From Sphaerolaimus hirsutus (Eukaryota > Nematoda > Chromadorea > Monhysterida > Sphaerolaimidae): a stretch of DNA of 64,000 nucleotides. The DNA is taken from contig OZ038452.1 of the NCBI GenBank assembly GCA_964036195.1, forward strand, positions 15,494,704-15,558,703, given 5' to 3'. Of the stretch, positions 6,047 through 36,806 are shown in pieces (position 1 is the stretch's first letter; each line of letters opens with the position of its first letter). The position numbers were made by a program, and so were the translations under genes. The notes beneath the pieces were generated by a model. That model saw only the letters and a program-made list of their open reading frames with translations, had not been told where the DNA came from and made no database searches.

Positions 6047-6982
6047 TCAATACATATAATAGAATAACCCCCCCGGTCTTGCAACCTTGTCATTAATACA
6101 ATACGATAACCCCTCGGGTCTTACAACATCACCATTATGGGCCAGATAGCAACACCTTGGACAATGCCCATTTCCGTCAGAACTCTCAACGATGCGCTCA
6201 TGCAGCCCATCCTGCCTAATGACGCCAAATCTACAGCACCTAACAGGGGACTTGGTTACCTTCTGCACGCGTGGAACGACAAACGATGGCAACACGCCAA
6301 CAAGATAATCGCACAATTCCGACAATTCAACGAGCGACATGTTGTCCACTGAACGCTTAACAATTGCCCTACAAGCCTTACGCTTGCCGCGTGCGCGGGA
6401 AACCTGTCTGCCAAACTTCACCAGCTTGGTGCCTTTCGACCTAGCTATTCCGAGGGACGTAGGCTTCGGAACTTTTCGGTCTACTTGGTTGCCACAGCTA
6501 ACAAAGTCCGGTCGCGCAAATTGCAAAAGCCTGCGGCTAATCACGTGCAGCTGTAATTTCCCCTTCTTACCCACCAAATACCAAAGGTTTCTAGGCTGCA
6601 CAACTTTCTTCAGCCTTTCAGCGGTTCTCTCCAAAACACCACAAATTCCGGGCTCAATAAAAGCTGGCTCCATGATCAAGTGATCGAGCAACCACTGCTG
6701 AGAAGCATCACTAATCACCTCGCCATTGGGCAAAACAGAGTCAATAACAAAATCACCAGCGCCCTGAACCTTTTCCGCATACGTGGCCTTTCGCTGAATT
6801 TGAAACAATTCCGACATGGGTTCAAAACTATCAAAAACTGGGCCCATTTCCAAATCATCAACCTCCCAGAAACCTTCAGAACTTGGCGCGCTTTCAGAAA
6901 CAGAAACAAGACTAGCCCACGCTTCGAAAACCGACAACTGAACATCATTCGAATGCAAGCAAACAGAAGCGACTTCCATCAT
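6047..6982 (-). CDS. LTR-encoded 311-aa ORF (3' LTR copy), probable N-terminal part of the gag-pol frame
   Basis: I do not recognise a domain. The ORF starts MMEVASVCLHSNDVQ, is acidic in its N-terminal half and becomes basic in the middle (GKRKACRAIVKRS). It contains one hairpin core, read as KVPKPTSLGIARSKG. It reaches the LTR edge and then runs two codons into flanking host DNA. The same last 36 or so codons (from CCYLAHNGDVVRPEG on) lie at the start of the open frame that continues through the primer site into gag-pol. Thus in an undamaged 5' LTR this ORF would be continuous with gag-pol. In the 3' LTR it has no downstream partner. Real expression is unproven. Confidence 0.55.
   Translation of the reverse strand: MMEVASVCLHSNDVQLSVFEAWASLVSVSESAPSSEGFWEVDDLEMGPVFDSFEPMSELFQIQRKATYAEKVQGAGDFVIDSVLPNGEVISDASQQWLLDHLIMEPAFIEPGICGVLERTAERLKKVVQPRNLWYLVGKKGKLQLHVISRRLLQFARPDFVSCGNQVDRKVPKPTSLGIARSKGTKLVKFGRQVSRARGKRKACRAIVKRSVDNMSLVELSELCDYLVGVLPSFVVPRVQKVTKSPVRCCRFGVIRQDGLHERIVESSDGNGHCPRCCYLAHNGDVVRPEGLSYCINDKVARPGGLFYYMY
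6051..6055. repeat. Target-site duplication TACAT, left
   Basis: TACAT precedes the LTR end here and recurs at 36807-36811. With this choice the far U3 end begins TG, as most LTRs do. A 4-bp ATAC pair (6050-6053 and 36810-36813) is the alternative reading. Confidence 0.65.
6438..6482. repeat. Hairpin-core copy, LTR ORF (5' LTR partner about 32985-33025)
   Basis: Variant core ATTCCGAGGGACGTAGGCTT with inner pairing TTCCGAG against CTTCGGAA. The outer stem is short (GACC with GGTC). It lies inside the 311-aa ORF. Confidence 0.6.
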
Positions 6983-8506
6983 GATTCACAAATTAGAATT
7001 AGACGTAATTAGGATCCACTAGCTGGAATGAGCCAATAGACTGAGTAGAGAATTAGTTGCACCGGAGTAAGCTTGAATTACACTAATTGGGTTTCTCGAA
7101 TAACGTTGCAAATAAGGTTTCCAAAGTATTTGAATATTTCCAATTTACCTTTCCACCTTCCAAATCAAAACATTAATACAAAAATGACTAAATAACACTC
7201 AGGGTCATATAAGCTTAACCAGACAGGTGAGGATAGCAGTACGGTACACTGGTAAGAGACCACACAAGTCCAGGTACTTAAGTTCTAGCTTGGCACAGCA
7301 CCACTATCAAAAGTAATTCTACGACGACGTAGCACAACTGTTTGGGCCCTTACGAAAGCCTAGAGCGAGTCAATAGGTGTACAGCCTACTTCAGCTTATA
7401 CTACGCCTAAAACAAGTCCACAGAGGTCCAGACGTACAGTAAGCATCACAGATGGTGGGTTCTCCCCATACAACACCCTATCTTAGCTATACCGGCAGCT
7501 CCGTGTGGCCACTCCTGCCCCTGTGAACCTAAATGTCACCGTGCAGAGGGAAGAGAAGGCCTATGCCAGAGTTAGCAGAGAATGAATAACCAAGGGTAGG
7601 CTCATTTCAGCTGGTAAATCACTGACTTAGTAATTAGAATTGGATTGAATAGACTGATGATAATCACAAGATTGGGGCTCTCTTTTATGGGTCTGAAATG
7701 CCCAAAACTGGTTTGCAGCTGGGCGGAGCCAACCAATCACCAGAGTACATTCAAAAGTGTAACCAAAATAAGTGACCTCAGCTGAACAGAGCCATGTACC
7801 ACAAGGGTTACTTTTTAATGGAACAAAAGGGAATGGTGACTTGACATTCAGGAACACCTTTCTTCTGGCACTCAGCCAGCTAGCAAAACCAAACCTGGAA
7901 CTGTGCCAAACTAGAAGGTAAAATACCTACAGTAACCTACCAAATGTAAACGCACAAACTAGCAGCTTAAAAGTACCTAAACTGAGTGAGACTCTCAAAA
8001 CTAAACATGATATAATTAAAAACAAGCCGAGTGAATCCACAGCTACTCAAAACTGCAAACAAGTGCAGAAGGACCAAAAATACAAAGATAACCGTATTTG
8101 CTCAACCGTGAGCTCGTCCAACCAGCGTACCAATCGACCAACGCGAAACCAAACACAAAGTGCAGAAATGCAAAACACAGAATTAAGTGCGAAACACAGA
8201 AATAAGTGCAAAACACAGAAATAAGTGCAAAACACAGAAATAATGGCAAACGTAAAAGCACAATCACAAACACATGCAATTATCACAAACTAAGGGGGTT
8301 AGGTGGGTAAATAAGTGCACATAAACACAAATACCTGCGCAATAAATCACCAATCGCGGCACCTACCGCGAACCTATTTCCTAACCCTACACCTACAACC
8401 TACAAAATCACAAAACTCCTCCCTGTGGCAGCAGTGGCTACGGGATATGTGCCAAATTACACACAAAAACGGCCTTTTTGGCACTCTTCCAATTTCCTTT
8501 GGGATT

Positions 8507-8553
8507 GGCCCGTCTCTACTCCGAAGGACGTAGACTTCAGGAGCTATCGGGCC
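8507..8553. repeat. Hairpin-core copy, LTR (5' LTR partner about 35051-35097)
   Basis: Variant with inner stem CTCCGAAG paired to CTTCAGGAG and loop GACGTAG. The outer stem is GGCCCG against CGGGCC, and pairing can extend to flanking GGGA and TCCC. Confidence 0.65.
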
Positions 8554-8596
8554 GCTCCCTATTTTACTATTTTACTTAAGGCACATATCCCTCCAG

Positions 8597-8660
8597 AAGG
8601 GGTGACCCGTCTCTACTCCGAAGGACGTAGGCTTCAGGAGCTATCGGGGCCATCCCTTCC
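8597..8660. repeat. Hairpin-core copy, LTR (5' LTR partner about 35141-35204)
   Basis: Same variant core as the preceding copy, but with a different outer stem, AAGGGGTGACCCG against CGGGGCCATCCCTT. Reuse of the core with a new stem is typical of the family. Confidence 0.65.
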
Positions 8661-8766
8661 GGTGGCCACTCCCACCAAGAGCTCTCTGAACGGCCGAAAC
8701 TCTGTCGCTCCGCGGACGTTTCCGGCGGCCATCGCTGTCGACGCTCGCGGGGACTGGGTAGGGGTT

Positions 8767-8773
8767 TTTTATA
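8767..8773 (-). promoter_or_regulatory. TATA-like box in 3' LTR (equivalent at 35311-35317 in 5' LTR)
   Basis: The minus strand reads CTTATAAAAAACC here. It lies downstream of the two CRE palindromes and about 1.8 kb upstream of the LTR ORF start, as expected for a core promoter at the U3/R boundary. The start site cannot be fixed from sequence alone. Confidence 0.35.
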
Positions 8774-9118
8774 AGTTTCTGAACAATAAACTGTCGCCAA
8801 AACACGGCGGCAGCACTTAACCCCCCTCGAAAATACGCTTGGTGCCATTTTTCAGAAGTTGGCACTCGGCCAAGAGTGGCCGATTTGACACTCTGCAAAA
8901 ATCCCCAAAACGCCCAAAATCCCCCTCTCCCGGGTTCCGGCGGTCGGCGGTCGTCCAATGGCGGCGGCGCGGCGCTGTCGCGGCCGTCGGAGTCATTCGC
9001 CGGCGCCCATTCGGTCGCCATACCCAGGGGAATCGATTTTCGCTCGGCGCTGCTTTTCTTTTTAATGAAAGCGCCATAAGTTTCGCAAAAGTTAGGTTTC
9101 ATTCCCGGAGGTGTCGAA

Positions 9119-9126
9119 TGACGTCA
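9119..9126. promoter_or_regulatory. CRE palindrome TGACGTCA, U3 module 1
   Basis: A perfect ATF/CREB consensus palindrome. The 5' LTR has it at 35663-35670. It belongs to a roughly 225-bp U3 module that also carries one hairpin core (9236-9262). Confidence 0.55.
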
Positions 9127-9221
9127 CCCGGGCCTTTTCATGAGTGAATACGGCTAATCAGGCCGTTTCGCTAATTAGGGCCGGCGACATAGCGCCATCG
9201 ATATACAATTCTATCGTAATT

Positions 9222-9275
9222 CGCGCTTAATCACCGTCCCAGAGGCGTAGGTCTGGCACTTTGGTGATCTGGCGC
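9222..9275. repeat. Hairpin-core copy, U3 module 1 (5' LTR partner about 35766-35820)
   Basis: Core 9236-9262 (TCCCAGAGGCGTAGGTCTGG). The outer stem GCGC..ATCACC pairs with GGTGAT..GCGC. Confidence 0.7.
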
Positions 9276-9348
9276 CAATTACCATAGTTGGCGTTCGTTG
9301 CGCCATAAGTTTCCTATAAGTTAGGTAATGTATGGGGCGGCGTCGTGA

Positions 9349-9356
9349 TGACGTCA
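9349..9356. promoter_or_regulatory. CRE palindrome TGACGTCA, U3 module 2
   Basis: The second perfect CRE. It is in the duplicated U3 module, whose start GCGCCATAAGTTTC repeats that of module 1, and is again followed by a hairpin core (9446-9471). The 5' LTR copy is at 35893-35900. Confidence 0.55.
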
Positions 9357-9430
9357 CTTGGCCCAAAAAGGGGTCAATATGGCGTCCCCGGCGACTAAAG
9401 CGCCATAATTAGGATTTAGTAGCGTTAATT

Positions 9431-9485
9431 GACGCTGGGTCACCGTCCCAGAGACATAGGTCTGGCACTTTGGTGGCCCGCCGTC
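9431..9485. repeat. Hairpin-core copy, U3 module 2 (5' LTR partner about 36731-36795)
   Basis: Core 9446-9471 (TCCCAGAGACATAGGTCTGG). The outer stem GACGCTGGGTCACC pairs with GGTGGCCCGCCGTC with few mismatches. Confidence 0.7.
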
Positions 9486-9548
9486 GATTATCGCATTACA
9501 TACTATACCGACCTTTTGAGCGCTGGCCCAGCGCGAACTGGCATTACA

Positions 9549-9566
9549 CTTCCTCCCCCCTTTTCT
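9549..9566 (-). promoter_or_regulatory. Polypurine tract of the retrotransposon
   Basis: The minus strand reads AGAAAAGGGGGGAGGAAG, directly followed by TGTAATGCC, the U3 start. It is the expected primer for plus-strand DNA synthesis. Confidence 0.8.
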
Positions 9567-10198
9567 AAAAGCGCGGGTTAGTCAGCGTAGCAGCGGCGAA
9601 GAGGGTGTTAAATACTGTTTTCAAGGAACTGCTGAACTGATGTTGATATTTTTCATGTATTTAAAGCGTTGCGGTGTATTTCAGGTAAATGTTTAAAGTA
9701 CGTTACAATTGCTACGAGATCGCAAGTGGAGCCCTGGAAAATACACAAACATGTGCACTGGAAGCACCCTAGTAAAGCGTCGAAACAGAATCTATAATTA
9801 TGGCAAGAAAAATTTTAAGGCAAGAATCATGAGAACCGTAAATGAGACCGTAAGACAAGTGGAATGCCACTAAAAATATAAACTAAACGCGACTAAGTGA
9901 AACCAACTACCAGGCTAGAAAATATTCACAACAGCACGAAATACAACAATTCACAAAAGGGATCCCGGTAGAAAACATATCCAGCTAACAATTCTTTAGA
10001 CTTATCATAAGCGCAAAACGAGGGCATTTTTATCTTGGTGGCACAAGCGCGCTGCTAATCGAATTCGCGGCTAATGTCACAAAACCCATAACTCATACGG
10101 TTTACCTCCACAAAATTACAAAAATCGCCACGCGCAACTGATTGACTGCGCTTACTAAAAGAAAATTTCAGAAAAGCAATATCAAAACGTACACAATG

Positions 10199-10251
10199 GG
10201 TGCTTTGGTCAGTCCCAGGGACGTAGGCTTGGCACTTTAGACCGCTGCACC
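10199..10251. repeat. Hairpin-core copy
   Basis: Core 10212-10239. The outer stem GGTGC-TTT-GGTC pairs with GACC-GCT-GCACC, that is 4 and 5 bp around a symmetric internal loop. Confidence 0.7.
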
Positions 10252-10417
10252 TAATTTTACACTAGAAACCAAATTAATACGCGTCTTGGTTCACCTGTAC
10301 CACAATAAAAGGTGATAACTAATACAAACTAAATTTAACACAAATTGTTGTTGGAATTACTACGTTTAACCTAAAGCGGAAAAATAATACTCAACGAAAA
10401 TTTGGAGCCATTATCAT

Positions 10418-10750: not shown

Positions 10751-10785
10751 TGTGCACAGTTTTTACACTGAACCCATGAAAATTC

Positions 10786-10973
10786 TCACTTTTCGCGACG
10801 GGGATCTTGCCAGTCAAGCTCACGTTGAAGTGGCTGTGTGAGCCGCATTTCCCCAGCGGTCACATGCATGACAATTTCATTGTCTCCTTGGTACATAAAT
10901 TCATGGAAATTTACATTTGGTGAACCAGTCATTGTCAAGCAATGAGTATGGCCAGCATTTTGATTTTGATCCA
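10786..10973 (-). CDS. Small ORF of unknown function, about 62 aa
   Basis: The frame is open further upstream (to 11190), but the portion from the internal Met at about 10973 (MDQNQNAGHTHC) looks the most protein-like and includes FMYQGDNEIVMHVTAG. No family is recognised. It may be part of the same split product as 10418-10750. Confidence 0.22.
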
Positions 10974-13325: not shown

Positions 13326-16300
13326 CTACTTGGTGCGAGCCTGGCGCAGGTGATGCACCCTACGGCTGGCCTTATTTGCACCTCGCGGCAAATTGTGCTC
13401 GCGTTTGATTACTGCAAGTTGTGGAATGGGACGCTGGCCCAGTTCCACCTGTTGTCCGATCGCAATGGTTGGATCTTGACCTTGGACAAACTGCACGGTC
13501 ATGATAGTTGGCGGGATTTCGTTAGGGTCATACCGCCGAACCGCCCTGCACCGTGCAATTCTATCCAAGAGTGCAGTGGGCAGCGGTTGAAGCGGCCGCG
13601 GGCGTCGGACAGCGCCTCGGCATTTCGCGAGAATGGACATTGCCAATTCATTTAGGCTCAGAACAGGCCACGGACGCTGAACGGGTTCACGCGCTAGCTG
13701 CTCCGCCATTGTCATATGCAACCGGCCCAGCCAGTTGTCACCCCACGTCTCTACGTTTGTCCAAGGAGTCCGGTCATTCATACCTTGCTTAATACCCCAA
13801 AACAAGTCATACGGGCTCGCCTCGATAAAAATCGAATCGGGGTTGTTGACGAGGGCGTTCCGGTAGACAGAGCAGGTCGCCAATTTGAGTCGCAAAACAG
13901 CGTGCATGGCTGCGATGGCAAGACCGCAGTCGTGCCACTCCCGCTGTTTCAGTTTCCAGTTGGCGATTCTACCCTCCCTACGCCAGGACGTCATTTGAGA
14001 CTTGCAGCGACTAGGCTCCGAGTGTCTAAGAAGGGGCACGATCAGCTCGTGGTCCCCGCTAAAGATCAGCTGCAGAACGTGATACAAGTGCTCAGATGAT
14101 GGCACGTACAGATCACCCATTAGTGGAATGGGGGCACTAAAAAAGTTCCCCAACGGACTATCTCCAGAGAAAAATAGATACGTGTGGTAGTTGCCAATCG
14201 ATATTGTACCCACGCCTGCGTGCACGTCCGGTCTTCCCAAGCCGGGACTTCCATCCAGTGCAAGCAGCCGGAGGATATACAACCGAAAGTCAAGCCAACG
14301 GCCTAAAGATGTGTTCAGCACGGGTTGCAAGACAAGGTCAGAGGGTCTCTTGACAGTCGCACACACGATCTTCGCGCGCAACAAGAAGGCCGTAAACTCG
14401 TCTCGAGTCTCATCAAGCATCGTCCGCAACTGGTCCAGGTCTGCTTGCCGAAGTCGGTCTTGCCATCTGACCCAGGTTCGTGGTGCTTCGGGGAAACGCA
14501 CACAATATGCCGCCCACTGTTTGTTCGAGAGCACCAACACGCGTAGGAGCTCCCGCTGTTTGCGCCAGAACGACAGCCAATTAAGGATGCTCCTAGTCAG
14601 TGCCGTATTCCTACCACCGCCAAAGTAGTGGTGCCCTATTGGCAGAATGGGCAGTACCTCCTCCGAGTTGGTGAAAACATTGGGTGGCACAGGCACTTCC
14701 AAGGTCAAGGGCGGTTTGTCGCTGAAGCTATCAAGGAAGAAGCGCAGAGTGCGTCCCACATTTGGGGTGTAACGAGACTCGTCCAAGCTGAGGCTCATAA
14801 GCATCTCAGCATAAAGGGGGCGGAGTGGGAGGGGTACGCTTTCGACGTGCAACCTCTCCCAACTGGGCGCGTACGTTTGCTCCGGCTGGAGCCACTCGCT
14901 CATGGGCCTCCTCAGCGGGTGTCGCGGGGACCAATCAGGGTCATAATGCCCTCTACCCCTCGCGACGGCCACTAAGCGCGCGAGTTCAGCCGGCCCAAAC
15001 GCATTTGCCAACCGGTGATCCGGCTGAGCCTCCCCTGGCGCCGCAAGTGGGAGTCCTGCGTTCCGCACCAACTGCAGTTGTTTAGTCTCCAAGTTGAAGA
15101 ACGGTCGGACGTCTTCCCCTTGCATCGTTGCCGCGTAATACTGGCGAAAAACATCAAACAACTGCGCGATGTGTTCTGGGAGCAGATCATCCCAGTACTG
15201 CGTCATGGGTAGCCAGGCCTCCCGGCGCCAAACCTGGATCATGCGACCCTCAATAGAGACTTCGCAATAGAAATAGGGGGTGCTGTTCATAATCCCCAAG
15301 ACCAAACCTGTTTCGAGCATAATATACGGGGCATTTTGCTCGCGAAAGAACTGTCGGCCCTGCTCGTGAGTGTGGAAGTTATTCACGGGCAGGTTAACCG
15401 GGGCCACTTGGACCTCTCCATCCGGCTGGATGAATGCAGCCGGTGGCACGTAGGCATCGCGGACTGGGATCGATCCAAAACCGTCAAAGGGGTCGTCTCC
15501 CAGTTCCGGCACGAAATACGCTGCCGGTTCTAAGGGTTCAACCAGGCCAAATGAGGACCACACTGCTGTTTTAGAAAATCCCAGCGCGTCCAGTCTCTCT
15601 TTGTCCCCCGAGTCATCGTGACCAAGCAATGTCCCCGCCAAAGCGCGAATTCTATCGTCGATTGCGCATTCGAACACTTCCTTAGCGAGCTGGTTGCGCA
15701 CCGGCTGGAGAGGTACGATGCGGAGTCTATAGGTGCCCTCGGCCCGGTTTGCCGCCTCCACCTCTTGGAGCCAGTTAGCCGGAACGTGGTCGGCCGAGAC
15801 ACCCGCATCGGACTGCTCCTCGTTGGCTGCGACCTCCATTGGGAGTACAATTTCCAGCTGTCCCGCTACGCTAGAGGCGGCCGAGGACATCCCTTCATCT
15901 ACCGACTCATCAGGGTTCAAAATGCGCCGGCGGGGGTCATCGGGAGCTGGCAAGGCGCGAGGCTCTACCAGACCGACATCCCACGTACGCACGCCAGAAT
16001 CTAACTGGGTAAAAGGGCGCTTATGCGGGTCGAAGAAGAAGTTGACCAGGCGGTTAGGCGCCGAGCCGTATTGCGCACCCTGGAAACCCGCGACGTCCTC
16101 CACAGGAAGTCCGTCGTCAAAGCAACCATGAAGCGGGTAGTTCTTATTGAGCCAAGTGTGAACGGGGTTGCCGTCAGGAGCTTCGCTCGTGCAGATCTTC
16201 TCAATGGGCTCTACGGGGCTGTCCCCATTGTCAAACCGTCGCAGGAGGAAGTGCTCCGCGTTATGGATAACCTCAAACCTTAGAGGCTGCTGCGGCTCTG

Positions 16301-22093: not shown

Positions 22094-23005
22094 TCACTTT
22101 GAATTAGAACGCACACATTTACCACTTCTGAGTACCATGCCATCACCTGACAGTGGCTTGCCACCAGGCGTCACACCAGTGTCAGTTTCCTCACCAGAAA
22201 CATCATGTGTCGGCAGTTCACTGTCCAACGGAACCTCACGCACCTTGCGCAGAGCGCGACCGGTCCAAATCGCACCGGAAGCTACAGAGTCCTTCACCGG
22301 AAGTAGTTTATCCAGGTTAACACGGATTGCTGCCGCATCGCATTGGTCGATGCGTTTAATTTTGGCTGTCTTCCCTTTAAGCTCCAAAATGCGATAAGGA
22401 CCGATGTACGGACGGGCAAGTTTATACGCAGGGCCAGTCACGACACCTTCTGCTAAGTACCACACACGCTGCCCTAAGTCAGGGGCTTACATTTCTTATC
22501 ATACTGAGCTTTTTGTTGTGCTTGCGCCAAATCGATCAACTCTTTGGCAATTTTCCAAGCCACGCGTATACTGGACAATCCGTTCATGGTACTTTGGATG
22601 TTCATTATACACAAGTTGCGACGTTTCCAAAAACGACGTGTCGCCGGGAAGCGGCATGTCGCGACCTGTTGCCAAAAAGTGCGGAGATTCGCCAGTACTT
22701 GCATGAGGTATGGCTCTATACCAGTACAAGGCAGGGGCAAGCCACTCATCCCAGTCAGTGGGGCGCAGAGTGCACATTTTCGCCGACATGTCTAACAAAG
22801 TGCGGTTGAAACGCTCTACTAATGCATTCGCTTGTGGGCGGTACACGGTGGTCTTACGATGGTCTGTTCCCCAAAATTGAGTCAACCCATGTAAAATTGC
22901 GTTGCAAAATTCCGATCCATTATCAGTGACGAGTATGCGTGGGACACCATGATCTGAAACAAATTGCATAAAATGGTATGCCACTGTTTCCGCGTCTTTT
23001 AATCG
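22094..23005 (-). pseudogene. Integrase C-terminal half and GPY/F module, frameshifted
   Basis: The gag-pol frame shifts at about 22997-23007. A second frame then carries the integrase Asp and Glu (VTDNGSEF at about 22915-22935, NALVERFNRTL at about 22800-22828) to about 22570. A third frame carries the tail WKIAKELIDLAQAQQKAQ to about 22485. A last frame holds ARPYIGPYRILEL (22381-22412), the GPY/F module typical of many Ty3/Gypsy integrases, and stops at 22094. These are three single-base shifts within 520 bp. Either this copy is dead or the assembly is locally wrong. Confidence 0.85.
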
Positions 23006-29000: not shown

Positions 29001-32000
29001 GCGATGGCGAGAGTGCTCGAAGCGATTATTTCGGTCAATTGGAAGCATCGGGGTAGTGTGCACAGGCACCGCCGAATATCGTCGTGCCAACTTAGTGTAG
29101 TTAGCCCCAACTTGCTTGTAATCGCGACGAGCATCACTAGCCAACTTATACAAAAAGTGACCATTAATATGGTACTGTTCGGGTAATGGATAAGTGTCTG
29201 TTATGCCTACCGTTTCGCCATGCTTAATAGAACGGTCAAGCGTATCAACAAGCTTTTGCACAAGGAAGGCACAGCGCTGAAATGCAGTAAGTAAGCTATC
29301 TGGGAACCAGCCATAGCGAAACACAAGTTGGAAAATGTATTCAGACTCAAAATAGGCAGCAATCAACAACTTTGAATAAGTGCGCACAAGATCGGTGTTC
29401 CGTGGATCAATGATGGCCCAGGGTGTGTCCATAATACCAACTGTAGGCAAAATACGACCAACCCAAGTGGTTTTGACGTCAAGCTCAGCCACTGGGCCAA
29501 CAGAGAACTCCGGACCTACAGGTTCTACCCAAGCGTGCGTAGATAAGTCAGTCAATACAATGCGCGGCGGGTCGGTTTGCACTTTGACAGACGGGTCAGG
29601 CGGCCACTGATGTGCCGCCATGTGCCGCATAGGGTCGGGGCTCATTAGGTGGGCTATTAAGACATTATTCCAGGCGGGGGGTAAGGTCGAAATGCTACGG
29701 TTCAACGGGGTAGTATACATGGATGGTTGATGCACACTCTGGTGTGGCTCGAGTACTCGCGAAGGTTGCGGTTTGGGTGTCGAAACAGGGGTTTTTCCAC
29801 GCAACTGGTGTAGCCAGTCTAATCCAAAACCGATATTATTCAGCAAATTCTGGCACACCAACCGACATTTCTGAGGAGTACACCTGTCTGAGACCTGACC
29901 AATATGCATCGCACAAAGGGCATTGTACTGCGCAAAGTCCAGATTCTCTAGATGGCACAAAAGGTCTCGGGCAGAGTCCAGGGTATTACCAAGGTGTGCA
30001 AGCAATTCTTTCCTTGTCTTATGAGCGACAGGGCCATTAACTTGGCGCTTAATCTCAGGTAATATGTCCGCAAACGCATGGTTGAGGCGAATGCCTTCAG
30101 CTATGCATCCGTGAAATTGCGCCATAGCGTACCGAGCTGTTTCTGGCAGAGTGCCAAGCAATGGCATATACGTGTTGAATCCGGTCCGGTGCACATCGAG
30201 GTAAACCCAGGCCTCTGTCAGGCTACGCAGGGCTGCAGCGCGTACTGTTTGGGGTACACCCTTATTTTCTAGGCCAAAGACACCAGCCGTTGATTTAGAC
30301 TGAATCTGAGAACGAAGGGCAGTCCAATCTCTAGCTGACTGTGCAGAAACTAGCAAAACGGATTGCATAAACGCGAGCGCGCACTGAACAGGGTAAGCGC
30401 GTGATTGTGGGCGCGCAGGACCAGGGTCTGACGCTGCTAGTACCTGCTGGTTCGCTTGCCTCTGAGCCGGCATAGCCATATCAACGGGCAGCCTAGTCCG
30501 AGCATTCACACCAGTGCAGAAGTTGCTGAGTAGGGACTGTAAATCGCCCGCTAGGGAATCAACCCGGGGTTTCAAGTGAACACTTAGGGTACGGTCAATG
30601 GAGTCTTGCAAGGACCCACGAAATGGCAACATTGCCTGTGACCACGTTCGAAGGGTCATCAGGGCCAAAGTAACATTATCCAGGGTGGTTTGCTGGGATG
30701 GGTCAGAAGGTGTCACAGTAGCAAGGTCGAACAATAGCTGATCTAACTTATCTATCTCGGGATCAAGCTCGCTTAGAAGTTGTTCAAAGGGTTGTAATAC
30801 ATCCCCAATGCACTGATCTGAGGGTTTCAGGTGATTCCATAATTTAGTAGGTTCACATGCTTGTTGCAAGGGGGAAATCATAGTATCGATCTCTGGGTGG
30901 TTGTTCGTCAGTAATTCTCGATGTTGTCTCACCGACCCAATGGGGGGTTGGAGTTGAGGGCTACTAGTAGGGTTGGAAGGTGGTGGTTTCACGGGGGTAA
31001 TTAGGTCACAGACAGCGGTAGGGGGTCTACTAGGGGATTGAATGCTCAGACACGGGGAACTAGTAGCTTGAGGGAAGTCCTTGTGGGGTCGTCTTAACAC
31101 TGTATCCCGAGATTCGTTAACATACGACATCCCTGGCTCAGAGGTATATGCTGGAGTAGCTAGGTCAGACATCCGGTCCCGAGAACCCACAGAATCGCCA
31201 ACATCATTACACAATATACCGCGGCGGCTGGTGCTGGCCCATTGGCCGACAGGGCGCGCGCGTTCCCTACCGTCTAGCTCAAAGAAGCTCTGCTGGTTAG
31301 AATTGCTGCGGCGGCGAGTAACCACACCCAAGGATGAATTATACTGCAACATATTAATATCCACAGCGTGAACCATGTAATTATCATTGGCGTCTGGCGT
31401 CGTGTGCGCTCCACTCAGTGCAGCGGGGTCGGCCATATAATCGTCAATAATTTCGAAAGAATTGAGCGAGTCCTCAATAAATACTGTTTGAAACGATTGG
31501 GCTGCGGACAAGGTAGTGGAGCACACACGTTCCAAAGCCACATCCGTGTCACAAGTAGAGTCATCTAGAGTGCTAGGCTGGCTAGCTGCCAAGTCAACAC
31601 TGTGCTCGAATTGACCTTGACCCACAATCCCAGAGACGTTGGTCTGGCATTTTAGTGAGTCACTATCAATTGAAGCATGCGATGACAAGCTCCATTCAGT
31701 TGAAAACTCAAGGTCATCAGAAGACCCTGATACACCATCATCAGCTGGCAAATACGAATACTGGCCAGCTGCCAAGTCCACATCATGCTTGAATTGACCC
31801 TGACCCACAATCCCAGAGACGTTGGTCTGGCATTTTAGTGAGTCACTATCAATTGAAGCACATGGCGACGAGCTCAGTTCAGTTGATTGCTCAAGGTCAT
31901 CAAAGGACCATGATGCACCATCATCAGCTGACAAATATAAATATTGATAATCAAACGAGTCAAAAGAGTAGTCAGTGGTCACGTATTTTTCACATGATTG

Positions 32001-32285
32001 ACATAGCTCTGGCTCGACATCAGTAGTTTCAAAAGTTTTGAACTGACAATTGACTGACACGGGGCATGAAAAAGATTTTGGAAATTTCAAAATTCGCATC
32101 AAAAATTGCCGCCAGGGCATGGTGTATCGTAGTCTCTCAAATTTGGAAATTTGACTCTGTTGCAGCACGGATGGGGCAGTATGCCAAGAAATCAAACAAT
32201 AATAGGCGCGTGACACACATTTCAAATGTTCAAAACGCTTACGCAAAAGCCAACATTTGTGGTTCCAGTATGTGCACGGTAGCAT
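22923..32285 (-). CDS. Gag-pol polyprotein (gag, protease, RT, RNase H, integrase start)
   Basis: The frame is open from inside the 5' LTR. The first Met after the primer site is at 32285, giving about 3120 residues. The gag N-terminus has two 61-residue repeats (31580-31945). Further on are a Gln-rich region, two CCHC knuckles (CDKCKMAGHTTEEC at about 27530-27572, CFKCNKPGHFSREC at about 27420-27462) and an aspartic protease motif ADTGAEL (about 26388-26408). The RT has SPWASPIVPVHKKNG, a FYLDD box (YLDD at 24747-24758) and LGMCSFYRRW. RNase H has HTDASRSGLGAVL and VTDHRTLTWAL. The integrase HHCC finger (HSWGHPAG to CLECA, 23180-23300) and first catalytic Asp (HMDVL) follow. Domain order is Ty3/Gypsy. 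Four hairpin cores lie inside the frame. It ends at a premature stop after a frameshift near 23000. Confidence 0.93.
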   Translation of the reverse strand: MLPCTYWNHKCWLLRKRFEHLKCVSRAYYCLISWHTAPSVLQQSQISKFERLRYTMPWRQFLMRILKFPKSFSCPVSVNCQFKTFETTDVEPELCQSCEKYVTTDYSFDSFDYQYLYLSADDGASWSFDDLEQSTELSSSPCASIDSDSLKCQTNVSGIVGQGQFKHDVDLAAGQYSYLPADDGVSGSSDDLEFSTEWSLSSHASIDSDSLKCQTNVSGIVGQGQFEHSVDLAASQPSTLDDSTCDTDVALERVCSTTLSAAQSFQTVFIEDSLNSFEIIDDYMADPAALSGAHTTPDANDNYMVHAVDINMLQYNSSLGVVTRRRSNSNQQSFFELDGRERARPVGQWASTSRRGILCNDVGDSVGSRDRMSDLATPAYTSEPGMSYVNESRDTVLRRPHKDFPQATSSPCLSIQSPSRPPTAVCDLITPVKPPPSNPTSSPQLQPPIGSVRQHRELLTNNHPEIDTMISPLQQACEPTKLWNHLKPSDQCIGDVLQPFEQLLSELDPEIDKLDQLLFDLATVTPSDPSQQTTLDNVTLALMTLRTWSQAMLPFRGSLQDSIDRTLSVHLKPRVDSLAGDLQSLLSNFCTGVNARTRLPVDMAMPAQRQANQQVLAASDPGPARPQSRAYPVQCALAFMQSVLLVSAQSARDWTALRSQIQSKSTAGVFGLENKGVPQTVRAAALRSLTEAWVYLDVHRTGFNTYMPLLGTLPETARYAMAQFHGCIAEGIRLNHAFADILPEIKRQVNGPVAHKTRKELLAHLGNTLDSARDLLCHLENLDFAQYNALCAMHIGQVSDRCTPQKCRLVCQNLLNNIGFGLDWLHQLRGKTPVSTPKPQPSRVLEPHQSVHQPSMYTTPLNRSISTLPPAWNNVLIAHLMSPDPMRHMAAHQWPPDPSVKVQTDPPRIVLTDLSTHAWVEPVGPEFSVGPVAELDVKTTWVGRILPTVGIMDTPWAIIDPRNTDLVRTYSKLLIAAYFESEYIFQLVFRYGWFPDSLLTAFQRCAFLVQKLVDTLDRSIKHGETVGITDTYPLPEQYHINGHFLYKLASDARRDYKQVGANYTKLARRYSAVPVHTTPMLPIDRNNRFEHSRHRLQLPTAQNAHSQIVRVTNSVSCDANVDMIQPDDVGTWDNQYDFLLSHQGYQQPDSAGGAPAPAAVQAPQRLYHTGHQHTGRLSVPPAHLSSSVAPTSALDQLKSEMDQKYANMCDQMEAMNANMRALLDQRRAQSRAQPQVSQPNVSNDPPSTATSSDEDLAKRIKKLKMLGCPMFSGKASVDVGQWLAQFTAKCRICKIASDEEMALTLAAVLEHDAATLCYGQPQEVQTSFTKLESALKAHFGQAKHVLATCRAITLMNWKPNDTIDTVRRRLMTESAQLKDVNHGERELRMIEGFLHALGQHNSELRQLVELNSASLESFDKLIQHAKVAQQSLENRKLEQDRSAKDTEFKRMRDELSQLRQQMSSARMGDNRQQLGGGMLAGQRPMFRPPMDMRQNPRFAFSAPQAQPSAQPPFNAQRMPIRPQRDIPPMRLPPAVQGPRFAPRPTVDVGPPVVAIDKPGRQPPNAYKSYFCDKCKMAGHTTEECGCRATGPTSSGPAPAQTPREPLKCFKCNKPGHFSRECPENMPVQNVNELYAQYDIIPDDQIGYTDLQNDLVEGVADPNDLQGYYNEYPSETMHQYQYDYSDMAPLETDALAEEENDVHVNFLGSCPELYNHSDPTPISYFDVCVTQWVDTSTTEPKGAVPKCQANVPGTACALSDSVAGKRPTASFCKTLTGVPQVDHVCDSIPHPSIPEIRIQSCEPDQTSALAVTTQKSQAYVPGIRDTAGTDDLEHVVLGSPRTVQVPTQTSTWTPSINMFCPINPATHTSVVAALDLSTSDAGRETCRDCKKYYWEQLSPDLGVKRVEYQCNAAQVVVTEPLGARLQSGKMTRPKHTVRDLITPSIYHRAVIQGVGPYLVLADTGAELSAIPVSLLEQIESLSGKCLDRRIFQLEKPLVCKGYTGHKHTLLYSIQLTVSIGTETRRINFAISFEGTQCIIGIGDYAKFWFLPICPGACMTRPVMHSNKRYLIPGDEPCLLYEGEIPYVDTGLRTGAIAKTGENIPEAIERVQSSNIYTVGSLLELYLAPKTDVNRLCSSSPVPYFSPSKGTGAVGVVATENWVCPPRSVSYVPAELAGAPQEILTTVLFSPHAHFFENFENTLLPLENGNELFVPFANHSDKEMVLFACQSLGWAEEVVVESTNDFHMNELAVEFADVWWQTVQIPLSKALCEANLASTQVEPPEDPVITAQSPSETRLHQLGKILDEGVLSHLPLEKQQVLRDWLLERHHIFSLSDFDMGDTGDIIYHPIETGNSPPIQQKVRRLAIGLRKEVERQVQLWLKLGIIEPSVSPWASPIVPVHKKNGALRLCVDYRRVNLVTKRDCFALPNCADLIDMAGLVHPQYFSSLDLASGYLQMRIDPRDIPKTAFTSHVGLFQYKFMPFGLVNAPASFSRLIANVLAGLDPDRVHFYLDDVLICAETEERMYLLLDDVFARFDRYTLKVGIKKCEFFKERVNFLGCVLTREGIEMQQSKITTIQNYPVPVTTKEIRQFLGMCSFYRRWVEGFSFITRPLHLKIQGAKTTWDDECQAAFEELKKRLVEGPILAYPKEGRPFILHTDASRSGLGAVLSQMDDAGRHRVVAYASCALKGAEKRYNTTELECLAIVWSLKYWKHYLTQQEVIIVTDHRTLTWALENRSENPRLDKWYVFLMAYQPEIIFKRGSENSVADALSRIAESVNFHKWTEDHLQGKFDPEEVPAGICPLTTFTDKWQAHPLNQPEPDLSEYSAVEITKISDEIHYEWHPPLGVGHIQVLDNIPQPASQDRTPKSNNPSIFEAKSTPVERFNMTGKDVDVIRDAGLAIDGIVGFTLESVAEETQKFWQWIIKGQEADPDTQSIKLFLTTRQYTKHARFNTWLDRNYTGFCVAHDVLWFMGNASRRACLVVPIEITSELCERFHSWGHPAGLKLSMWLRIYFWWFTLTMDAHRAVDKCLECATRTGQGRKRLNPLTPISVVAEPFFRIHMDVLKMPMSQNGFQYVLVLQDAFTKYPCAYALSIKRRGNSGIPFYAICFRSWCPTHTRH
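26792..26877. repeat. Hairpin-core copy inside gag-pol
   Basis: Core 26822-26848. The outer stem is about 28 bp long: CCAGGTCAT..CCGCGGTATCACG pairs with CGTGGTTACCGCG..TGAGGTCTGG. In gag-pol it reads KSQAYVPGI. The stem is kept although the region is coding. Confidence 0.75.
27001..27081. repeat. Hairpin-core copy inside gag-pol
   Basis: Core 27029-27055. The outer stem CTACTGAG..GCGCGCATGCC pairs with GGCACGGCGCC..CTCAGTAG. It reads KCQANVPGT in the protein. Confidence 0.73.
31603..31677. repeat. Hairpin-core copy inside gag repeat 2
   Basis: Core 31628-31654 (AGA..TCT inner pair). The outer stem TGCT..AATTGA..TGAC.CAC pairs with GTG.GTCA..TCAATT..AGCA, 17 of 23 positions. It reads KCQTNVSGI. 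Confidence 0.73.
31786..31860. repeat. Hairpin-core copy inside gag repeat 1
   Basis: Core 31811-31836. Same stem arrangement as 31603-31677, because both lie in a duplicated gag segment. It reads KCQTNVSGI. Confidence 0.73.
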
Positions 32286-32387
32286 AGGGCTAAGCTGAAA
32301 CACTACGCCCTGTACGCATGGAGGGTGGCTATGTGTGCGGTGTGAAGGGGGGGTGAAAGGGGGGTGCAACACGGTGCCGTAACCCGA

Positions 32388-32400
32388 GGTGGGACCTCCA
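32388..32400 (-). promoter_or_regulatory. Primer binding site, tRNA-Gln(TTG)
   Basis: The minus strand reads TGGAGGTCCCACC beginning 2 nt after the LTR end. It is complementary to the conserved 3' end (GGTGGGACCTCCA) of animal tRNA-Gln with anticodon TTG, from memory of that tRNA. The match stops after 13 nt. Confidence 0.75.
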
Positions 32401-32509
32401 ATATAATAGAATAACCCCCCCGGTCTTGCAACCTTGTCATTAATACAATACGATAACCCCTCGGGTCTTACAACATCACCATTATGGGCCAGATAGCAAC
32501 ACCTTGGAC

Positions 32510-32697
32510 TAGGGTTCAAACGATATCACTTTTCAATATCGATATTCAATATTCGATATTTTTTCAAAATTTTCGATATCGATATTTGATATTCGATATT
32601 TTTTCAAAATTTTCGATATCGATATTCGATATTCGATATTAAAAAATGGTCGATATCCGATATTCGATATTCAATACGATATATCGTTTGAACCCTA
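32510..32697. mobile_element. hAT-type MITE, TAGGGTTCAAACG family with ATATCG array (in 5' LTR)
   Basis: Ends TAGGGTTCAAACGATATC and CGTTTGAACCCTA. The 8-bp duplication CCTTGGAC lies at 32502-32509 and 32698-32705. The 3' LTR has a single CCTTGGAC at the same place, an exact empty site. The body is ATATCGATATTCG units. It interrupts the LTR ORF. Confidence 0.95.
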
Positions 32698-32705
32698 CCT
32701 TGGAC

Positions 32706-33526
32706 AATGCCCATTTCCGTCAGAACTCTCAACGATGCGCTCATGCAGCCCATCCTGCCTAATGACGCCAAATCTACAGCACCTAACAGGGGACTTGGCT
32801 ACCTTCTGCACGCGTGGAATGACAAACGATGGCAACACGCCAACAAGATAATCGCACAATTCCGACAATTCAACGAGTGACATGTTGTCCACTGAACGCT
32901 TAACAATTGCCCTACAAGCCTTACGCTTGCCGCGTGCGCAGGAAACCTGTCTGCCAAACTTCACCAGCTTGGTGCCTTTCGACCTAGCTATTCCGAGGGA
33001 CGTAGGCTTCGGAACTTTTTGGTCTACTTGGTTGCCACAGCTAACAAAGTCCGGTCGCGCAAATTGCAAAAAGCCTGCGGCTAATCACGTGCAGCTGTAA
33101 TTTCCCCTTCTTACCCACCAAATACCAAAGGTTTCTAGGCTGCACAACTTTCTTCAGCCTTTCAGCGGTTCTCTCCAAAACACCACAAATTCCGGGCTCA
33201 ATAAAAGCTGGCTCCATGATCAAGTGATCGAGCAACCACTGCTGAGAAGCATCACTAATCACCTCGCCATTGGGCAAAACAGAGTCAATAACAAAATCAC
33301 CAGCGCCCTGAACCTTTTCCGCATACGTGGCCTTTTGCTGAATTTGAAACAATTCCGACATGGGTTCAAAACTATCAAAAACTGGGCCCATTTCCAAATC
33401 ATCAACCTCCCAGAAACCTTCAGAACTTGGCGCGCTTTCAGAAACAGAAACAAGACTAGCCCACGCTTCGAAAACCGACAACTGAACATCATTCGAATGC
33501 AAGCAAACAGAAGCGACTTCCATCAT
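32706..33526 (-). pseudogene. Broken 5' LTR copy of the 311-aa ORF
   Basis: This is homologous to 6180-6982. It opens with the same start (33526) but shifts frame at about 33067-33071, where this LTR has five A and the 3' LTR has four. The second frame then runs to a hAT MITE inserted at 32510-32697. Two independent lesions therefore separate the LTR start codon from the gag-pol frame in this copy. Confidence 0.8.
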
Positions 33527-35928
33527 GATTCACAAATTAGAATTAGACGTAATTAGGATCCACTAGCTGGAATGAGCCAATAGACTGAGTAGAGAATTAG
33601 TTGCACCGGAGTAAGCTTGAATTACACTAATTGGGTTTCTCGAATAACGTTGCAAATAAGGTTTCCAAAGTATTTGAATATTTCCAATTTACCTTTCCAC
33701 CTTCCAAATCAAAACATTAATACAAAAATGACTAAATAACACTCAGGGTCATATAAGCTAAACCAGACAGGTGAGGATAGCAGTACGGTACACTGGTAAG
33801 AGACCACACAAGTCCAGGTACTTAAGTCCTAGCTTGGCACAGCACCACTATCAAAAGTAATTCTACGACGACGTAGCACAACTGTTTGGGCCCTTACGAA
33901 AGCCTAGAGCGAGTCAATAGGTGTACAGCCTACTTCAGCTTATACTACGCCTAAAACAAGTCCACAGAGGTCCAGACGTACAGTAAGCATCACAGATGGT
34001 GGGTTCTCCCCATACAACACCCTATCTTAGCTATACCGGCAGCTCCGTGTGGCCACTCCTGCCCCTGTGAACCTAAATGTCACCGTGCAGAGGGAAGAGA
34101 AGGCCTATGCCAGAGTTAGCAGAGAATGAATAACCAAGGGTAGGCTCATTTCAGCTGGTAAATCACTGACTTAGTAATTAGAATTGGATTGAATAGACTG
34201 ATGATAATCACAAGATTGGGGCTCTCTTTTATGGGTCTGAAATGCCCAAAACTGGTTTGCAGCTGGGCGGAGCCAACCAATCACCAGAGTACATTCGAAA
34301 GTGTAACCAAAATAAGTGACCTCAGCTGAACAGAGCCATGTACCACAAGGGTTACTTTTTAATGGAACAAAAGGGAATGGTGACTTGACATTCAGGAACA
34401 CCTTTCTTCTGGCACTCAGCCAGCTAGCAAAACCAAACCTGGAACTGTGCCAAACTAGAAGGTAAAATACCTACAGTAACCTACCGAATGTAAACGCACA
34501 AACTAGCAGCTTAAAAGTACCTAAACTGAGTGAGACTCTCAAAACTAAACATGATATAATTAAAAACAAGCCAAGTGAATCCACAGCTACTCAAAACTGC
34601 AAACAAGTGCAAAAGGACCAAAAATACAAAGATAACCGTATTTGCTCAACCGTGAGCTTGTCCAACCAGCGTACCAATCGGCCAACGCAAAACCAAACAC
34701 AAAGTGCAGAAATGCAAAACACAGAATTAAGTGCGAAACACAGAAATAAGTGCAAAACACAGAAATAAGTGCAAAACACAGAAATAATGGCAAATGTAAA
34801 AGCACAATCACAAACACATGCAATTATCACAAACTAAGGGGGTTAGGTGGGTAAATAAGTGCACATAAACACAAATACCTGCGCAATAAATCACCAATCG
34901 CGGCACCTACTGCGAACCTATTTCCTAACCCTACACCTACAACCTACAAAATCACAAAACTCCTCCCTGTGGCAGCAGTGGCTACGGGATATGTGCCAAA
35001 TTACACACAAAAACGGCCTTTTTGGCACTCTTCCAATTTCCTTTGGGATTGGCCCGTCTCTACTCCGAAGGACGTAGACTTCAGGAGCTATCGGGCCGCT
35101 CCCTATTTTACTATTTTACTTAAGGCACATATCCCTCCAGAAGGGGTGACCCGTCTCTACTCCAAAGGACGTAGGCTTCAGGAGCTATCGGGGCCATCCC
35201 TTCCGGTGGCCACTCCCACCAAGAGCTCTCTGAACGGCCGAAACTCTGTCGCTCCGCGGACGTTTCCGGCGGCCATCGCTGTCGATGCTCGCGGGGACTG
35301 GGTAGGGTTTTTTTATAAGTTTCTGAACAATAAACTGTCGCCAAAACACGGCGGCAGCACTTAACCCCCCTCGAAAATATGCTTGGTGCCATTTTTCAGA
35401 AGTTGGCACTCGGCCAAGAGTGGCCGATTTGACACTCTGCAAAAATCCCCAAAACGCCCAAAATCCCCCTCTCCCGGGTTCCGGCGGTCAGCGGTCGTCC
35501 AATGGCGGCGGCGCGGCGCTGTCGCTGCCGTCGGAGTCGTTCGCCAGCGCCCATTCGGTCGCCATACCCAGGGGAATCGATTTCCGCTCGGCGCTGCTTT
35601 TCTTTTTAATGAAAGCGCCATAAGTTTCGCAAAAGTTAGGTTTCATTCCCGGAGGTGTCGAATGACGTCACCCGGGCCTTTTCATGAGTGAATACGGCTA
35701 ATCAGGCCGTTTCGCTAATTAGGGCCGGCGACATAGCGCCATCGATATACAATTCTATCGTAATTCGCGCTTAATCACCGTCCCAGAGGCGTAGGTCTGG
35801 CACTTTGGTGATCTGGCGCCAATTACCATAGTTGGCGTTCGTTGCGCCATAAGTTTCCTATAAGTTAGGTTCCGTATGGGGCGGCGTCGTGATGACGTCA
35901 CTTGGCCCAAAAAGGGGTCAATATGGCG

Positions 35929-36682
35929 TAGGGTTGGGAATTTCAAAATTTTCGGTTCCGGTTCTCGGTTCTCGGTTCCAAAAGATTTCGGTTCGGGTAT
36001 CGGTTCTCGGTTCCTGAAAATTTTCGGTTCCGGTTCTCGGTTCGGTTCCTCAACTCGGTTCCGGTTCGGTTCTTTCGGTTCTAAAATGATTAAAATGTCG
36101 GTTCCGGGTAATAAAATAACCGGGTATCGGGTAATAATCGGTTAATGATGTATTTAGAACGATTTGCGGCCACATGGAGCCAATCTGATGATAATACCGT
36201 AGTGGGGTGAAAAATGAGCGCTCGCGCGCAAAATTTTTTATGCTGACGCCGAAAAAATTTCATCATATTTATCAAAGCAATTTGATAAATATGATGAAAT
36301 TTTTTTATGTTTGTTCTTTTATTCAGGTGGGATATGGCAGATTTCATTGTTAGGTGTAATGTCGCTGGAGTATATGTGAAATTACACGCTCCCGCGCAAT
36401 CATTTTGCAAACAGATGAATTTTGCAATTCTGAACACGCACGAAGATGTTCAGCTGCTGTTATAAGGCTTAGATGTAGGTGTTGAAAAAACGCTGTTTAA
36501 AAATTAAAGATTCCTAGAAAATTTCGGTTCTTTCGGGTATTTACTTCGGTTCCGGGTATAAGTGTCGGTTCTCGGTTCCGGTTCGGTTCTCAAGCTCGGT
36601 TCCGGTTCTCGGTTCTCGGTTCCAAAATAGTGCTCGGTTCTCGGTTCGGTTCGGTTCGGGTCGGTTCGGTTCCCCAACCCTA
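35929..36682. mobile_element. hAT-type MITE, TAGGGTTGGG family with GGTTCTCGGTTCC array (in 5' LTR)
   Basis: Ends TAGGGTTGGGAATTTC and GGTTCCCCAACCCTA. The 8-bp duplication ATATGGCG lies at 35921-35928 and 36683-36690, with an empty site in the 3' LTR near 9378-9385. GGTTCGGTTCTCGGTTCC iterations flank a unique centre with the GCGCTCGCGCGC module and a palindromic ATTTGATAAATATGATG stretch. Confidence 0.95.
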
Positions 36683-36806
36683 ATATGGCGTCCCCGGCGA
36701 CTAAAGCGCCATAATTAGGATTTAGTAGCGTTAATTGACGCTGGGTCACCGTCCCAGAGACATAGGTCTGGCACTTTGGTGGCCCGCCGTCGATTATCGC
36801 ATTACA

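What the first reader, a model, noticed from the sequence alone, without database searches (positions are those of the whole stretch)
6056..36806. A family of about 24 same-orientation hairpins with conserved covarying core and unrelated stems inside one retrotransposon
Seen directly: 14 interior copies (cores near 10212, 11550, 11696, 12535, 12733, 12841, 13018, 13127, 13255, 21090, 26822, 27029, 31628 and 31811) and five in each LTR share TCCCA-RR-GACGTAGG-YY-TGG-SACTTT. The RR and YY positions covary: GG with CT, AG with CT, AGA with TCT, and a GAAG..CTTC variant. Each copy is enclosed by an outer stem of 10-28 bp whose two sides match each other but not those of other copies. All have the same strand sense. 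None was noticed outside the element or in its cargo ORFs. Conserved loop plus changing, self-complementary stems argues for a selected folded RNA or DNA structure rather than simple repeats. Candidate roles (inference): packaging or dimerisation signal, a site bound by an element protein, small-RNA precursor, or a self-spreading hairpin cassette.
Basis: seen in the sequence. Interest (0 to 1): 0.9.

Follow-up and report, generated by a model that had tools for sequence, protein, structure and literature searches.

The report
Repeated RNA hairpins in giant retrotransposon
A 31-kb virus-like jumping gene, present in dozens of copies in one genome, carries about two dozen look-alike hairpins whose tips are nearly fixed while their stems change letters on both sides and stay paired, which points to a new multi-copy docking site in the element's RNA.

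Summary
The window holds a 30.8-kb Ty3/gypsy LTR element coded on the minus strand. A covariance model finds 18 strong hairpins in it (14 interior, 2 per LTR; E 6e-10 or better) and 6 weaker LTR variants, all on the coding strand; outside the element nothing rises above noise. Outer stems differ between hairpins but stay paired: 6 of the 10 best of 1275 column pairs are proposed base pairs. Among orthologous hairpins from the window and 18 fetched loci, mismatch per base is 1.6% in the apex, 4.6% in the outer stem, 12.3% in the flanks. The 348-Mb genome holds 730 exact cores against 0 for a reversed control and 62 reverse-transcriptase rows of this family. Rfam has no match.

Wobble pairs favour the coding strand only moderately, so a hairpin in the genomic RNA is likely, not shown: outer stem, AAA bulge, inner stem, loop CCUACGUC. 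Best reading: a multivalent protein-docking array, most likely Gag-bound packaging or condensation signals; export elements are the main rival. Function is inferred.

The parts
6054..9508 (-). 3' LTR (3455 bp), five hairpins
   Evidence: self-BLAST, 99% identical to the shared parts of the other LTR
32401..36813 (-). 5' LTR, same five hairpins, with extra stretches 32509-32697 and 35929-36682 absent from the 3' LTR
22923..32519 (-). gag-pol ORF (3198 aa in this copy): zinc knuckle, RT, RNase H, integrase zinc domain; integrase core in another frame at 22499-23071
18232..20139 (-). cargo ORF, 635 aa, no relative found; no hairpins
13326..18296 (-). cargo ORF, 1656 aa, C-terminal NADAR domain; no hairpins
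32380..32400 (-). likely primer-binding site (TGGAGGTCCCACCTCGGG) next to the 5' LTR
   Evidence: read; inference
10199..10251 (-). hairpin, 3' noncoding region
   Evidence: R1 65.3 bits
11536..11588 (-). hairpin, 3' noncoding region
   Evidence: R1 65.1 bits
11681..11733 (-). hairpin, 3' noncoding region; carries the U-A to C-G change; paralogue of 13242-13294
   Evidence: R1 58.1 bits
12522..12574 (-). hairpin, 3' noncoding region
   Evidence: R1 65.3 bits
12720..12772 (-). hairpin, 3' noncoding region
   Evidence: R1 63.4 bits
12827..12879 (-). hairpin, 3' noncoding region
   Evidence: R1 62.4 bits
13004..13056 (-). hairpin, 3' noncoding region
   Evidence: R1 62.8 bits
13113..13165 (-). 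hairpin, 3' noncoding region; weak outer stem
   Evidence: R1 62.3 bits
13242..13294 (-). hairpin, just 3' of the cargo ORF
   Evidence: R1 62.3 bits
21076..21128 (-). hairpin between pol and cargo ORFs
   Evidence: R1 60.6 bits
26808..26861 (-). hairpin inside gag-pol ORF, after the zinc knuckle
   Evidence: R1 45.6 bits
27015..27067 (-). hairpin inside gag-pol ORF, after the zinc knuckle
   Evidence: R1 59.9 bits
31614..31666 (-). hairpin inside N-terminal part of gag-pol ORF, in a 183-bp tandem repeat
   Evidence: R1 60.4 bits
31797..31849 (-). second copy in the 183-bp tandem repeat
   Evidence: R1 62.4 bits
9223..9275 (-). LTR hairpin (also 35767-35819)
   Evidence: R1 61.5 bits
9432..9484 (-). 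LTR hairpin (also 36738-36790)
   Evidence: R1 61.6 bits
6447..6475 (-). LTR variant hairpin, same loop (also 32990-33018)
   Evidence: R1 20.8 bits; fold
8505..8560 (-). LTR variant hairpin, GAAG/CTTC inner stem (also 35049-35104)
   Evidence: R1 9.1 bits, noise level; fold; 248 genomic matches to this core type against 0 in control
8603..8651 (-). LTR variant hairpin, sister of the previous (also 35147-35195)
   Evidence: R1 14.0 bits on the loop only; fold

Best explanation
Shown: a family of about 24 hairpins per element copy with a near-invariant apex and variable outer stems that stay paired, changing less than their flanks, in a giant Ty3/gypsy element. Written on the coding strand: variable outer stem (about 8 to 30 pairs in the folds), a position mostly unpaired, a 3-nt AAA bulge on the 5' side, inner stem RU-S-CCARR paired with YYUGG-G-AY, and 8-nt loop CCUACGUC. 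Inferred: the hairpins work in the element's sense RNA as a multivalent docking array for one RNA-binding protein that reads the loop and the AAA bulge while the outer stem only presents them. Most likely the protein is the element's own Gag (one zinc knuckle by Pfam, a second by eye) or a cargo-encoded protein, and the array marks, condenses and packages a genomic RNA of some 27-31 kb, much as MS2 coat protein reads a bulged A plus a loop motif on many hairpins. New hairpins arise, at least in part, by duplication of whole hairpins, after which stems drift with compensating changes.
For: Covariation: score 0.452 against 0.193 shuffled, 0 of 500; permutation p 5e-5 to 3e-3 for four outer pairs and 5e-4 for the closing pair, 6 of the top 10 of 1275 column pairs are proposed pairs; 72 distinct of 150 aligned hairpins give 0.388 against 0.174 (related rows, fitted to the model). 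Own arms against swapped arms 37.7 against 17.7. Mismatch gradient apex 1.6%, stem 4.6%, flank 12.3%. Restriction: one ordinary gypsy element of the same genome has no match above 7.4 bits. Hairpin strand equals RT strand in the window and in 13 of 13 fetched clusters that have a listed RT row beside them. Paralogue pair 11702/13263: 6 double changes that keep pairing, 3 single (a two-sequence fold favours paired columns). Copies in LTRs, gag, an intergenic stretch and the 3' region fit a multivalent site. Precedents: bulge-plus-loop packaging signals, PMC6281560 (passages); Gag sites in Ty1/Ty3 RNA not precisely defined and possibly scattered, PMC4974528 (passages).
Against: No binding, expression or packaging data. 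The two cargo ORFs (6.8 kb) and the RT-integrase part of pol lack hairpins, and 9 of 14 interior copies sit between the last ORF and the 3' LTR, which suits a 3'-UTR function (export, localisation, stability) as well as packaging. Strand preference is moderate: 100 G-U to 63 A-C (p 0.005), but 43 to 30 at depth 30 (p 0.16), 26 to 17 at depth 20 and 18 to 9 at depth 12 (none significant), and 32 to 31 by events among orthologues. In the apex one variable pair wobbles on the sense strand (columns 18-41) and another would wobble only on the antisense strand (24-35). So a DNA or antisense structure is not excluded. Strict counts of compensated double changes among orthologues are small (4 compensated, 2 not).
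Confidence: 0.42

Rival explanations
1. Nuclear export or cytoplasmic-routing elements: the hairpins recruit a host factor (such as NXF1) so that a very long RNA leaves the nucleus, like the CTE of M-PMV; copies add up.
For: 9 of 14 interior hairpins and those of the 3' LTR lie in the 3' part of the element; cargo ORFs downstream of pol suggest subgenomic RNAs (inference); multiple CTEs have additive effects in PMC4829213 (passages). That the CTE lies near the 3' LTR is recalled.
Against: No likeness to any Rfam family at the curated cut-offs and only one chance-level match in the 3' region; about 24 copies per element, some in gag and the 5' LTR.
Confidence: 0.22
2. Small-RNA precursors: the hairpins are processed by Drosha/Dicer, with a fixed tip as processing signal and changing arms as products.
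For: Long imperfect stems, and six hairpins spaced 107-198 nt apart at 12543-13263, look like a precursor cluster.
Against: Conservation is the reverse of a miRNA family (recalled pattern): apex 1.6% mismatch, stem 4.6%; no Rfam match.
Confidence: 0.1
3. RNA localisation, stability or translation control element in the 3' region, bound by a host protein.
For: Position of the main cluster.
Against: Copies inside coding sequence and both LTRs; no Rfam match.
Confidence: 0.12
4. Single-stranded or cruciform DNA structure used in reverse transcription or integration.
For: Strand preference of wobble pairs is only moderate, and the hairpins fold on either strand.
Against: G-U excess on the coding strand at full depth; no obvious reason for two dozen copies in a DNA role (inference).
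Confidence: 0.08
5. A selfish hairpin cassette that copies itself within the element with no benefit to it.
For: Some hairpins are duplicates of others, e.g. the 183-bp tandem at 31578-31946.
Against: The three isolated genomic places that were fetched were element remnants, so no insertion into foreign sequence was seen; pairing is kept after duplication, which suggests selection.
Confidence: 0.04

Closest known systems
MS2-type dispersed packaging signals (coat-protein-binding stem-loops; PMC6281560, passages read)
   Same: Many hairpins in one genomic RNA share a 5'-side bulged A and a loop motif, while stems vary.
   Different: Here the apex looks far more conserved, the host element is an LTR retrotransposon, large coding regions are free of hairpins, and no binding protein is known.
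M-PMV constitutive transport element (PMC4829213, passages read)
   Same: Structured RNA recognition unit in an LTR retroelement that acts additively when repeated.
   Different: About 24 units per element, copies also in gag and 5' LTR, and no Rfam hit. Sequence was not compared directly with the CTE.
HIV-1 TAR / RRE stem IIB (recalled, no call)
   Same: Hairpin with a 3-nt bulge (TAR), or G-G mismatch (RRE IIB), below a short stem.
   Different: Single site each; U-rich bulge in TAR; no Tat- or Rev-like protein identified here.
Burro giant gypsy-like elements of planarians (PMC6431247, passages read)
   Same: More than 30 kb, gypsy-type pol, large extra coding capacity.
   Different: None of the extra domains named for Burro was found by Pfam here; cargo is a NADAR protein and an orphan protein; the passages read do not mention repeated hairpins.

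Membership tests
Dispersed packaging signals | many stem-loops with a shared recognition motif across one genomic RNA | tested here: met
   24 copies in this element, covarying stems; that they are in RNA is inferred
Dispersed packaging signals | motif in loop plus 5' bulge presented by variable stems | tested here: met
   loop CCUACGUC and AAA bulge conserved with few variants; outer stems variable
Dispersed packaging signals | bound by the coat/Gag protein and needed for assembly | not testable with these tools
   needs binding and packaging assays
Constitutive transport element | near the 3' LTR (recalled feature) | tested here: inconclusive
   9 of 14 interior copies lie between the last ORF and the 3' LTR, 5 elsewhere
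Constitutive transport element | binds NXF1 and exports intron-containing RNA | not testable with these tools
   needs export and binding assays
miRNA gene family | arm (mature) sequence more conserved than the loop (recalled feature) | tested here: not met
   apex 1.6% against outer stem 4.6% mismatch
Any described RNA family (Rfam 15) | score above the curated cut-off | tested here: not met
   0 matches in 64 kb; in 9150-13400 one match at E 1.4, far below its cut-off
Simple dispersed repeat or MITE | whole unit, arms included, is alike between copies | tested here: not met
   5 of 120 pairs have arms above the 99% level, 17 above the 95% level
Burro-type giant gypsy element | over 30 kb with gypsy pol | tested here: met
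   30.8 kb, RVT_1, RT_RNaseH, rve
Burro-type giant gypsy element | BIR, MATH, BCL2-like, ankyrin or env-like domains | tested here: not met
   only NADAR, zinc knuckle and pol domains reach Pfam cut-offs or E 0.01; profile-profile search, by which env was found in Burro, not run

The most novel reading that the evidence does not exclude
A previously undescribed RNA family in which one giant LTR retrotransposon writes the same protein-docking hairpin two dozen times into its own genome as a packaging and compaction code, letting it exceed the usual size limit of such elements.
Probability: 0.35. Interest if true: 0.88.

Novelty: new variant of a known kind. Interest (0 to 1): 0.72.

Why it matters
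Where Gag binds the genomic RNA of LTR retrotransposons is not precisely defined even in Ty1 and Ty3 (PMC4974528, passages read), and packaging capacity is named as a possible limit on retrotransposon size (PMC6431247, passages read). A natural array of two dozen near-identical docking sites in a 31-kb element, with 62 reverse-transcriptase rows of its family in one genome for comparison, makes both questions directly testable. The strongest part, a covarying hairpin family under constraint, does not depend on which role is right.

Tried and rejected
Rejected: known Rfam family; origin in viruses or prokaryotes (no exact match to a degenerate 19-base core in the viral collection; 26 matches to a degenerate core in the prokaryote genome collection, which I judge chance level because my own letter count expects about 60); simple repeat; miRNA-type conservation. 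Kissing through the palindrome ACGT in the loop was set aside because loop variants break it (ATGT at 9453, ACGC in others).

The 120 RT relatives listed of 515 found were 28-47% identical. R-scape is not available. Paper searches, none of which listed a report of such hairpins: (no paper at all).

Rows dropped: 31818 (tandem duplicate of 31635) was left out; the 5'-LTR duplicates (32999, 35071, 35168, 35788, 36759) were left out; one search printed but did not count 31818, 35788 and 36759 and did not hold the LTR variants; the LTR variants are not in model R1. In some searches, four groups of one hairpin each were skipped: 170 of 174 hairpins in 12 groups were used, identical sequences counted once. 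One search aligned the best 150 of 167 matches. One search failed with a script error and was rerun.
Full report
WHAT IS THERE. The window (64 kb of a 348-Mb, 762-contig genome; G000:C3:15494704-15558703) contains one LTR element at 6054-36813. Its LTRs are 6054-9508 and 32401-36813 and match at 99% or more over the shared parts; the second has two extra stretches. The ORFs are on the minus strand: a 3198-aa gag-pol frame with zinc knuckle, reverse transcriptase, RNase H and integrase zinc domain, the integrase core in another frame, then a 635-aa and a 1656-aa ORF, the last with a C-terminal NADAR domain (E 1.3e-12). It is therefore a giant Ty3/gypsy element, and the 5' LTR is the one at 32401-36813. 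A likely primer-binding site lies next to it (inference).

THE HAIRPINS. A covariance model built from 16 of them finds, with filters off over both strands of the window, 18 matches of 45.6-65.3 bits, then the LTR variants at 20.8 (two), 14.0 (two) and 9.1 bits (two); the best match outside the element has 9.6 bits, E 3. So the 9.1-bit variant is recognised by its fold and its own genomic pattern, not by the model. The 24 are on the minus (coding) strand. Fourteen are interior: nine between the last ORF and the 3' LTR, one between pol and the cargo ORFs, two after the zinc knuckle inside the gag-pol ORF, and two in a 183-bp tandem repeat in its N-terminal part. The four coding ones share one codon phase (the two in the tandem are one event). 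The two cargo ORFs have none.

ANATOMY (coding strand, unless said). Variable outer stem; one position that is unpaired in 12 of 16, C-G in 3, A-U in 1; a 3-nt AAA bulge on the 5' side; a pair that is G-U (8), G-C (6) or A-U (2); a pair U-A (15) or C-G (1); a position C-G (4) or unpaired, mostly G-G (12); CCA with UGG in 16 of 16; a position G-C (6), A-U (2) or unpaired A-C (8); a closing pair G-C (10) or A-U (6); loop CCUACGUC with single-letter variants. The row 26829 is out of register by one base in the outer stem of this alignment. The LTR variants keep the loop but change inner stem and internal loop.

IS IT MORE THAN CHANCE, AND IS IT CONSTRAINED? Covariation score 0.452 against 0.193 in shuffles (0 of 500) and at most 0.169 in slid registers; the number of further pair types does not exceed the shuffles (237 of 500 reach it). 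With the tandem duplicate removed (15 rows), 6 of the 10 best of 1275 column pairs are proposed pairs; permutation p is 5e-5, 1.2e-3, 2.5e-3 and 2.8e-3 for four outer pairs, 0.023 for a fifth and 5e-4 for the closing pair. The other nine proposed pairs, invariant, mismatched or too variable, give no significant signal. The two arms of one hairpin pair with mean score 37.7 against 17.7 (sd 6.8) for arms swapped between hairpins; 14 of 18 exceed the 95th percentile and 6 of 18 the maximum; the four lowest are 6456, 8527, 13134 and 10220. Among orthologous hairpins (174 in the window and 18 fetched loci; 170 in 12 groups used) the mean mismatch per base is 1.6% in the apex (348 sites), 4.6% in the outer stem (658) and 12.3% in the flanks (541). 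The core pattern itself was required to find the hairpins, which lowers the apex figure somewhat. Over the alifold pairs, changed cells are 104 to G-U, 96 to Watson-Crick, 63 to unpaired on one side, 18 double changes that stay Watson-Crick and 1 that does not; this count uses a structure fitted to the alignment and leans towards it. In the stricter count, with Watson-Crick pairs shared by folds of both strands, there are 69 G-U, 46 A-C and 37 other single changes, 4 compensated and 2 uncompensated doubles.

HOW THE FAMILY GROWS. Arms of 5 of 120 hairpin pairs are alike above the 99% level of shuffles. In the pair 11702/13263 six predicted pairs changed on both sides and still pair and three changed on one side; 9453/31635 shows five double changes, 9244/31635 three and 9244/9453 two (two-sequence folds, which favour paired columns). 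Of 15 sources with the 12543-type hairpin, 8 hold two. So at least some hairpins duplicate as whole units and then drift with compensation, which argues against insertion of a fixed core into existing palindromes.

WHICH STRAND. Folding each strand gave 70 G-U pairs on the coding strand and 30 on the other for 18 hairpins. With a scoring that treats G-T and A-C alike the excess is 100 to 63 (p 0.005), but 43 to 30 within 30 bases (p 0.16), 26 to 17 within 20 and 18 to 9 within 12, and 32 to 31 by events among orthologues. I take sense RNA as likely (about 0.8, judgement), not as shown.

THE GENOME. Exact matches to a degenerate 20-base core: 354 forward and 376 reverse, control 0; up to 3 mismatches 1855 against 184 in the control; a 28-base pattern 462 against 0; the LTR-type core up to 2 mismatches 248 against 0. 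Only about the first 100 places of each are listed. Those form clusters of one orientation; the three isolated places, which I fetched (L057, L058, L059), were a truncated copy and two solo LTRs. In 18 fetched loci the model found 167 matches, 161 of them strong (E 2e-9 or better), on one strand within each locus. A reverse-transcriptase query gave 99 scored rows of 2009 candidates: 62 rows at 94-100% identity, 57 of them over the whole query, then 37 rows at 37-40%. Many of the 62 lie in open frames of over 3700 aa, longer than in this copy. One ordinary gypsy element from the second group (L075, 172-bp repeats at its ends) has no hairpin above 7.4 bits. So the trait appears to belong to this family; one control element is a small sample.

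WHAT IT MOST LIKELY DOES. A fixed loop and bulge on stems that only need to pair is what one expects of a protein-docking site. The number and spread of copies suggest a multivalent array. The element's own Gag is the first candidate, with packaging and compaction of a very long RNA as the role; this works like the MS2 scheme, where coat protein reads a loop motif and a 5' bulged A on many stem-loops (PMC6281560, passages). The 3' concentration suits an export element as well (PMC4829213, passages). Steps shown: existence, covariation, constraint, absence from the one control element, duplication of some hairpins. Steps inferred: RNA rather than DNA, sense strand, protein, Gag, packaging.

NOVELTY. 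No Rfam family. Eight answered paper searches listed no report of such hairpins; only open-licence papers were searched. Structured cis elements in retroelements are a known kind; two dozen covarying copies in one element are, to my knowledge, a new variant.

Noticed in passing
13326-18296 and 18232-20139, minus strand: Cargo ORFs with no relative found in a search of 5.8 billion proteins, save a NADAR domain (ADP-ribose-related) at the end of the larger one.
   Followed up: partly
8182-8239 and 34726-34783, minus strand: A 19-bp tandem repeat (TTATTTCTGTGTTTTGCAC) inside both LTRs.
   Followed up: no
35929-36682 and 32509-32697: Repeat-like stretches in the 5' LTR that the 3' LTR lacks; the second resembles repeats near 497-722 and 53052-53195.
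   Followed up: no
2245, 3246, 39956, 40399, 51749: GGACGTAGCCAGG motifs in other repeats share GGACGTAG with the hairpin loop on the + strand; none is among the matches of the hairpin model. Origin of the likeness unknown.
   Followed up: partly
3907-4230, minus strand: Open stretch that reads like an animal cytochrome P450 exon (by eye, not tested).
   Followed up: no
L060-L074: Eight of 15 sources hold two hairpins of the 12543 type; the window copy holds one.
   Followed up: partly
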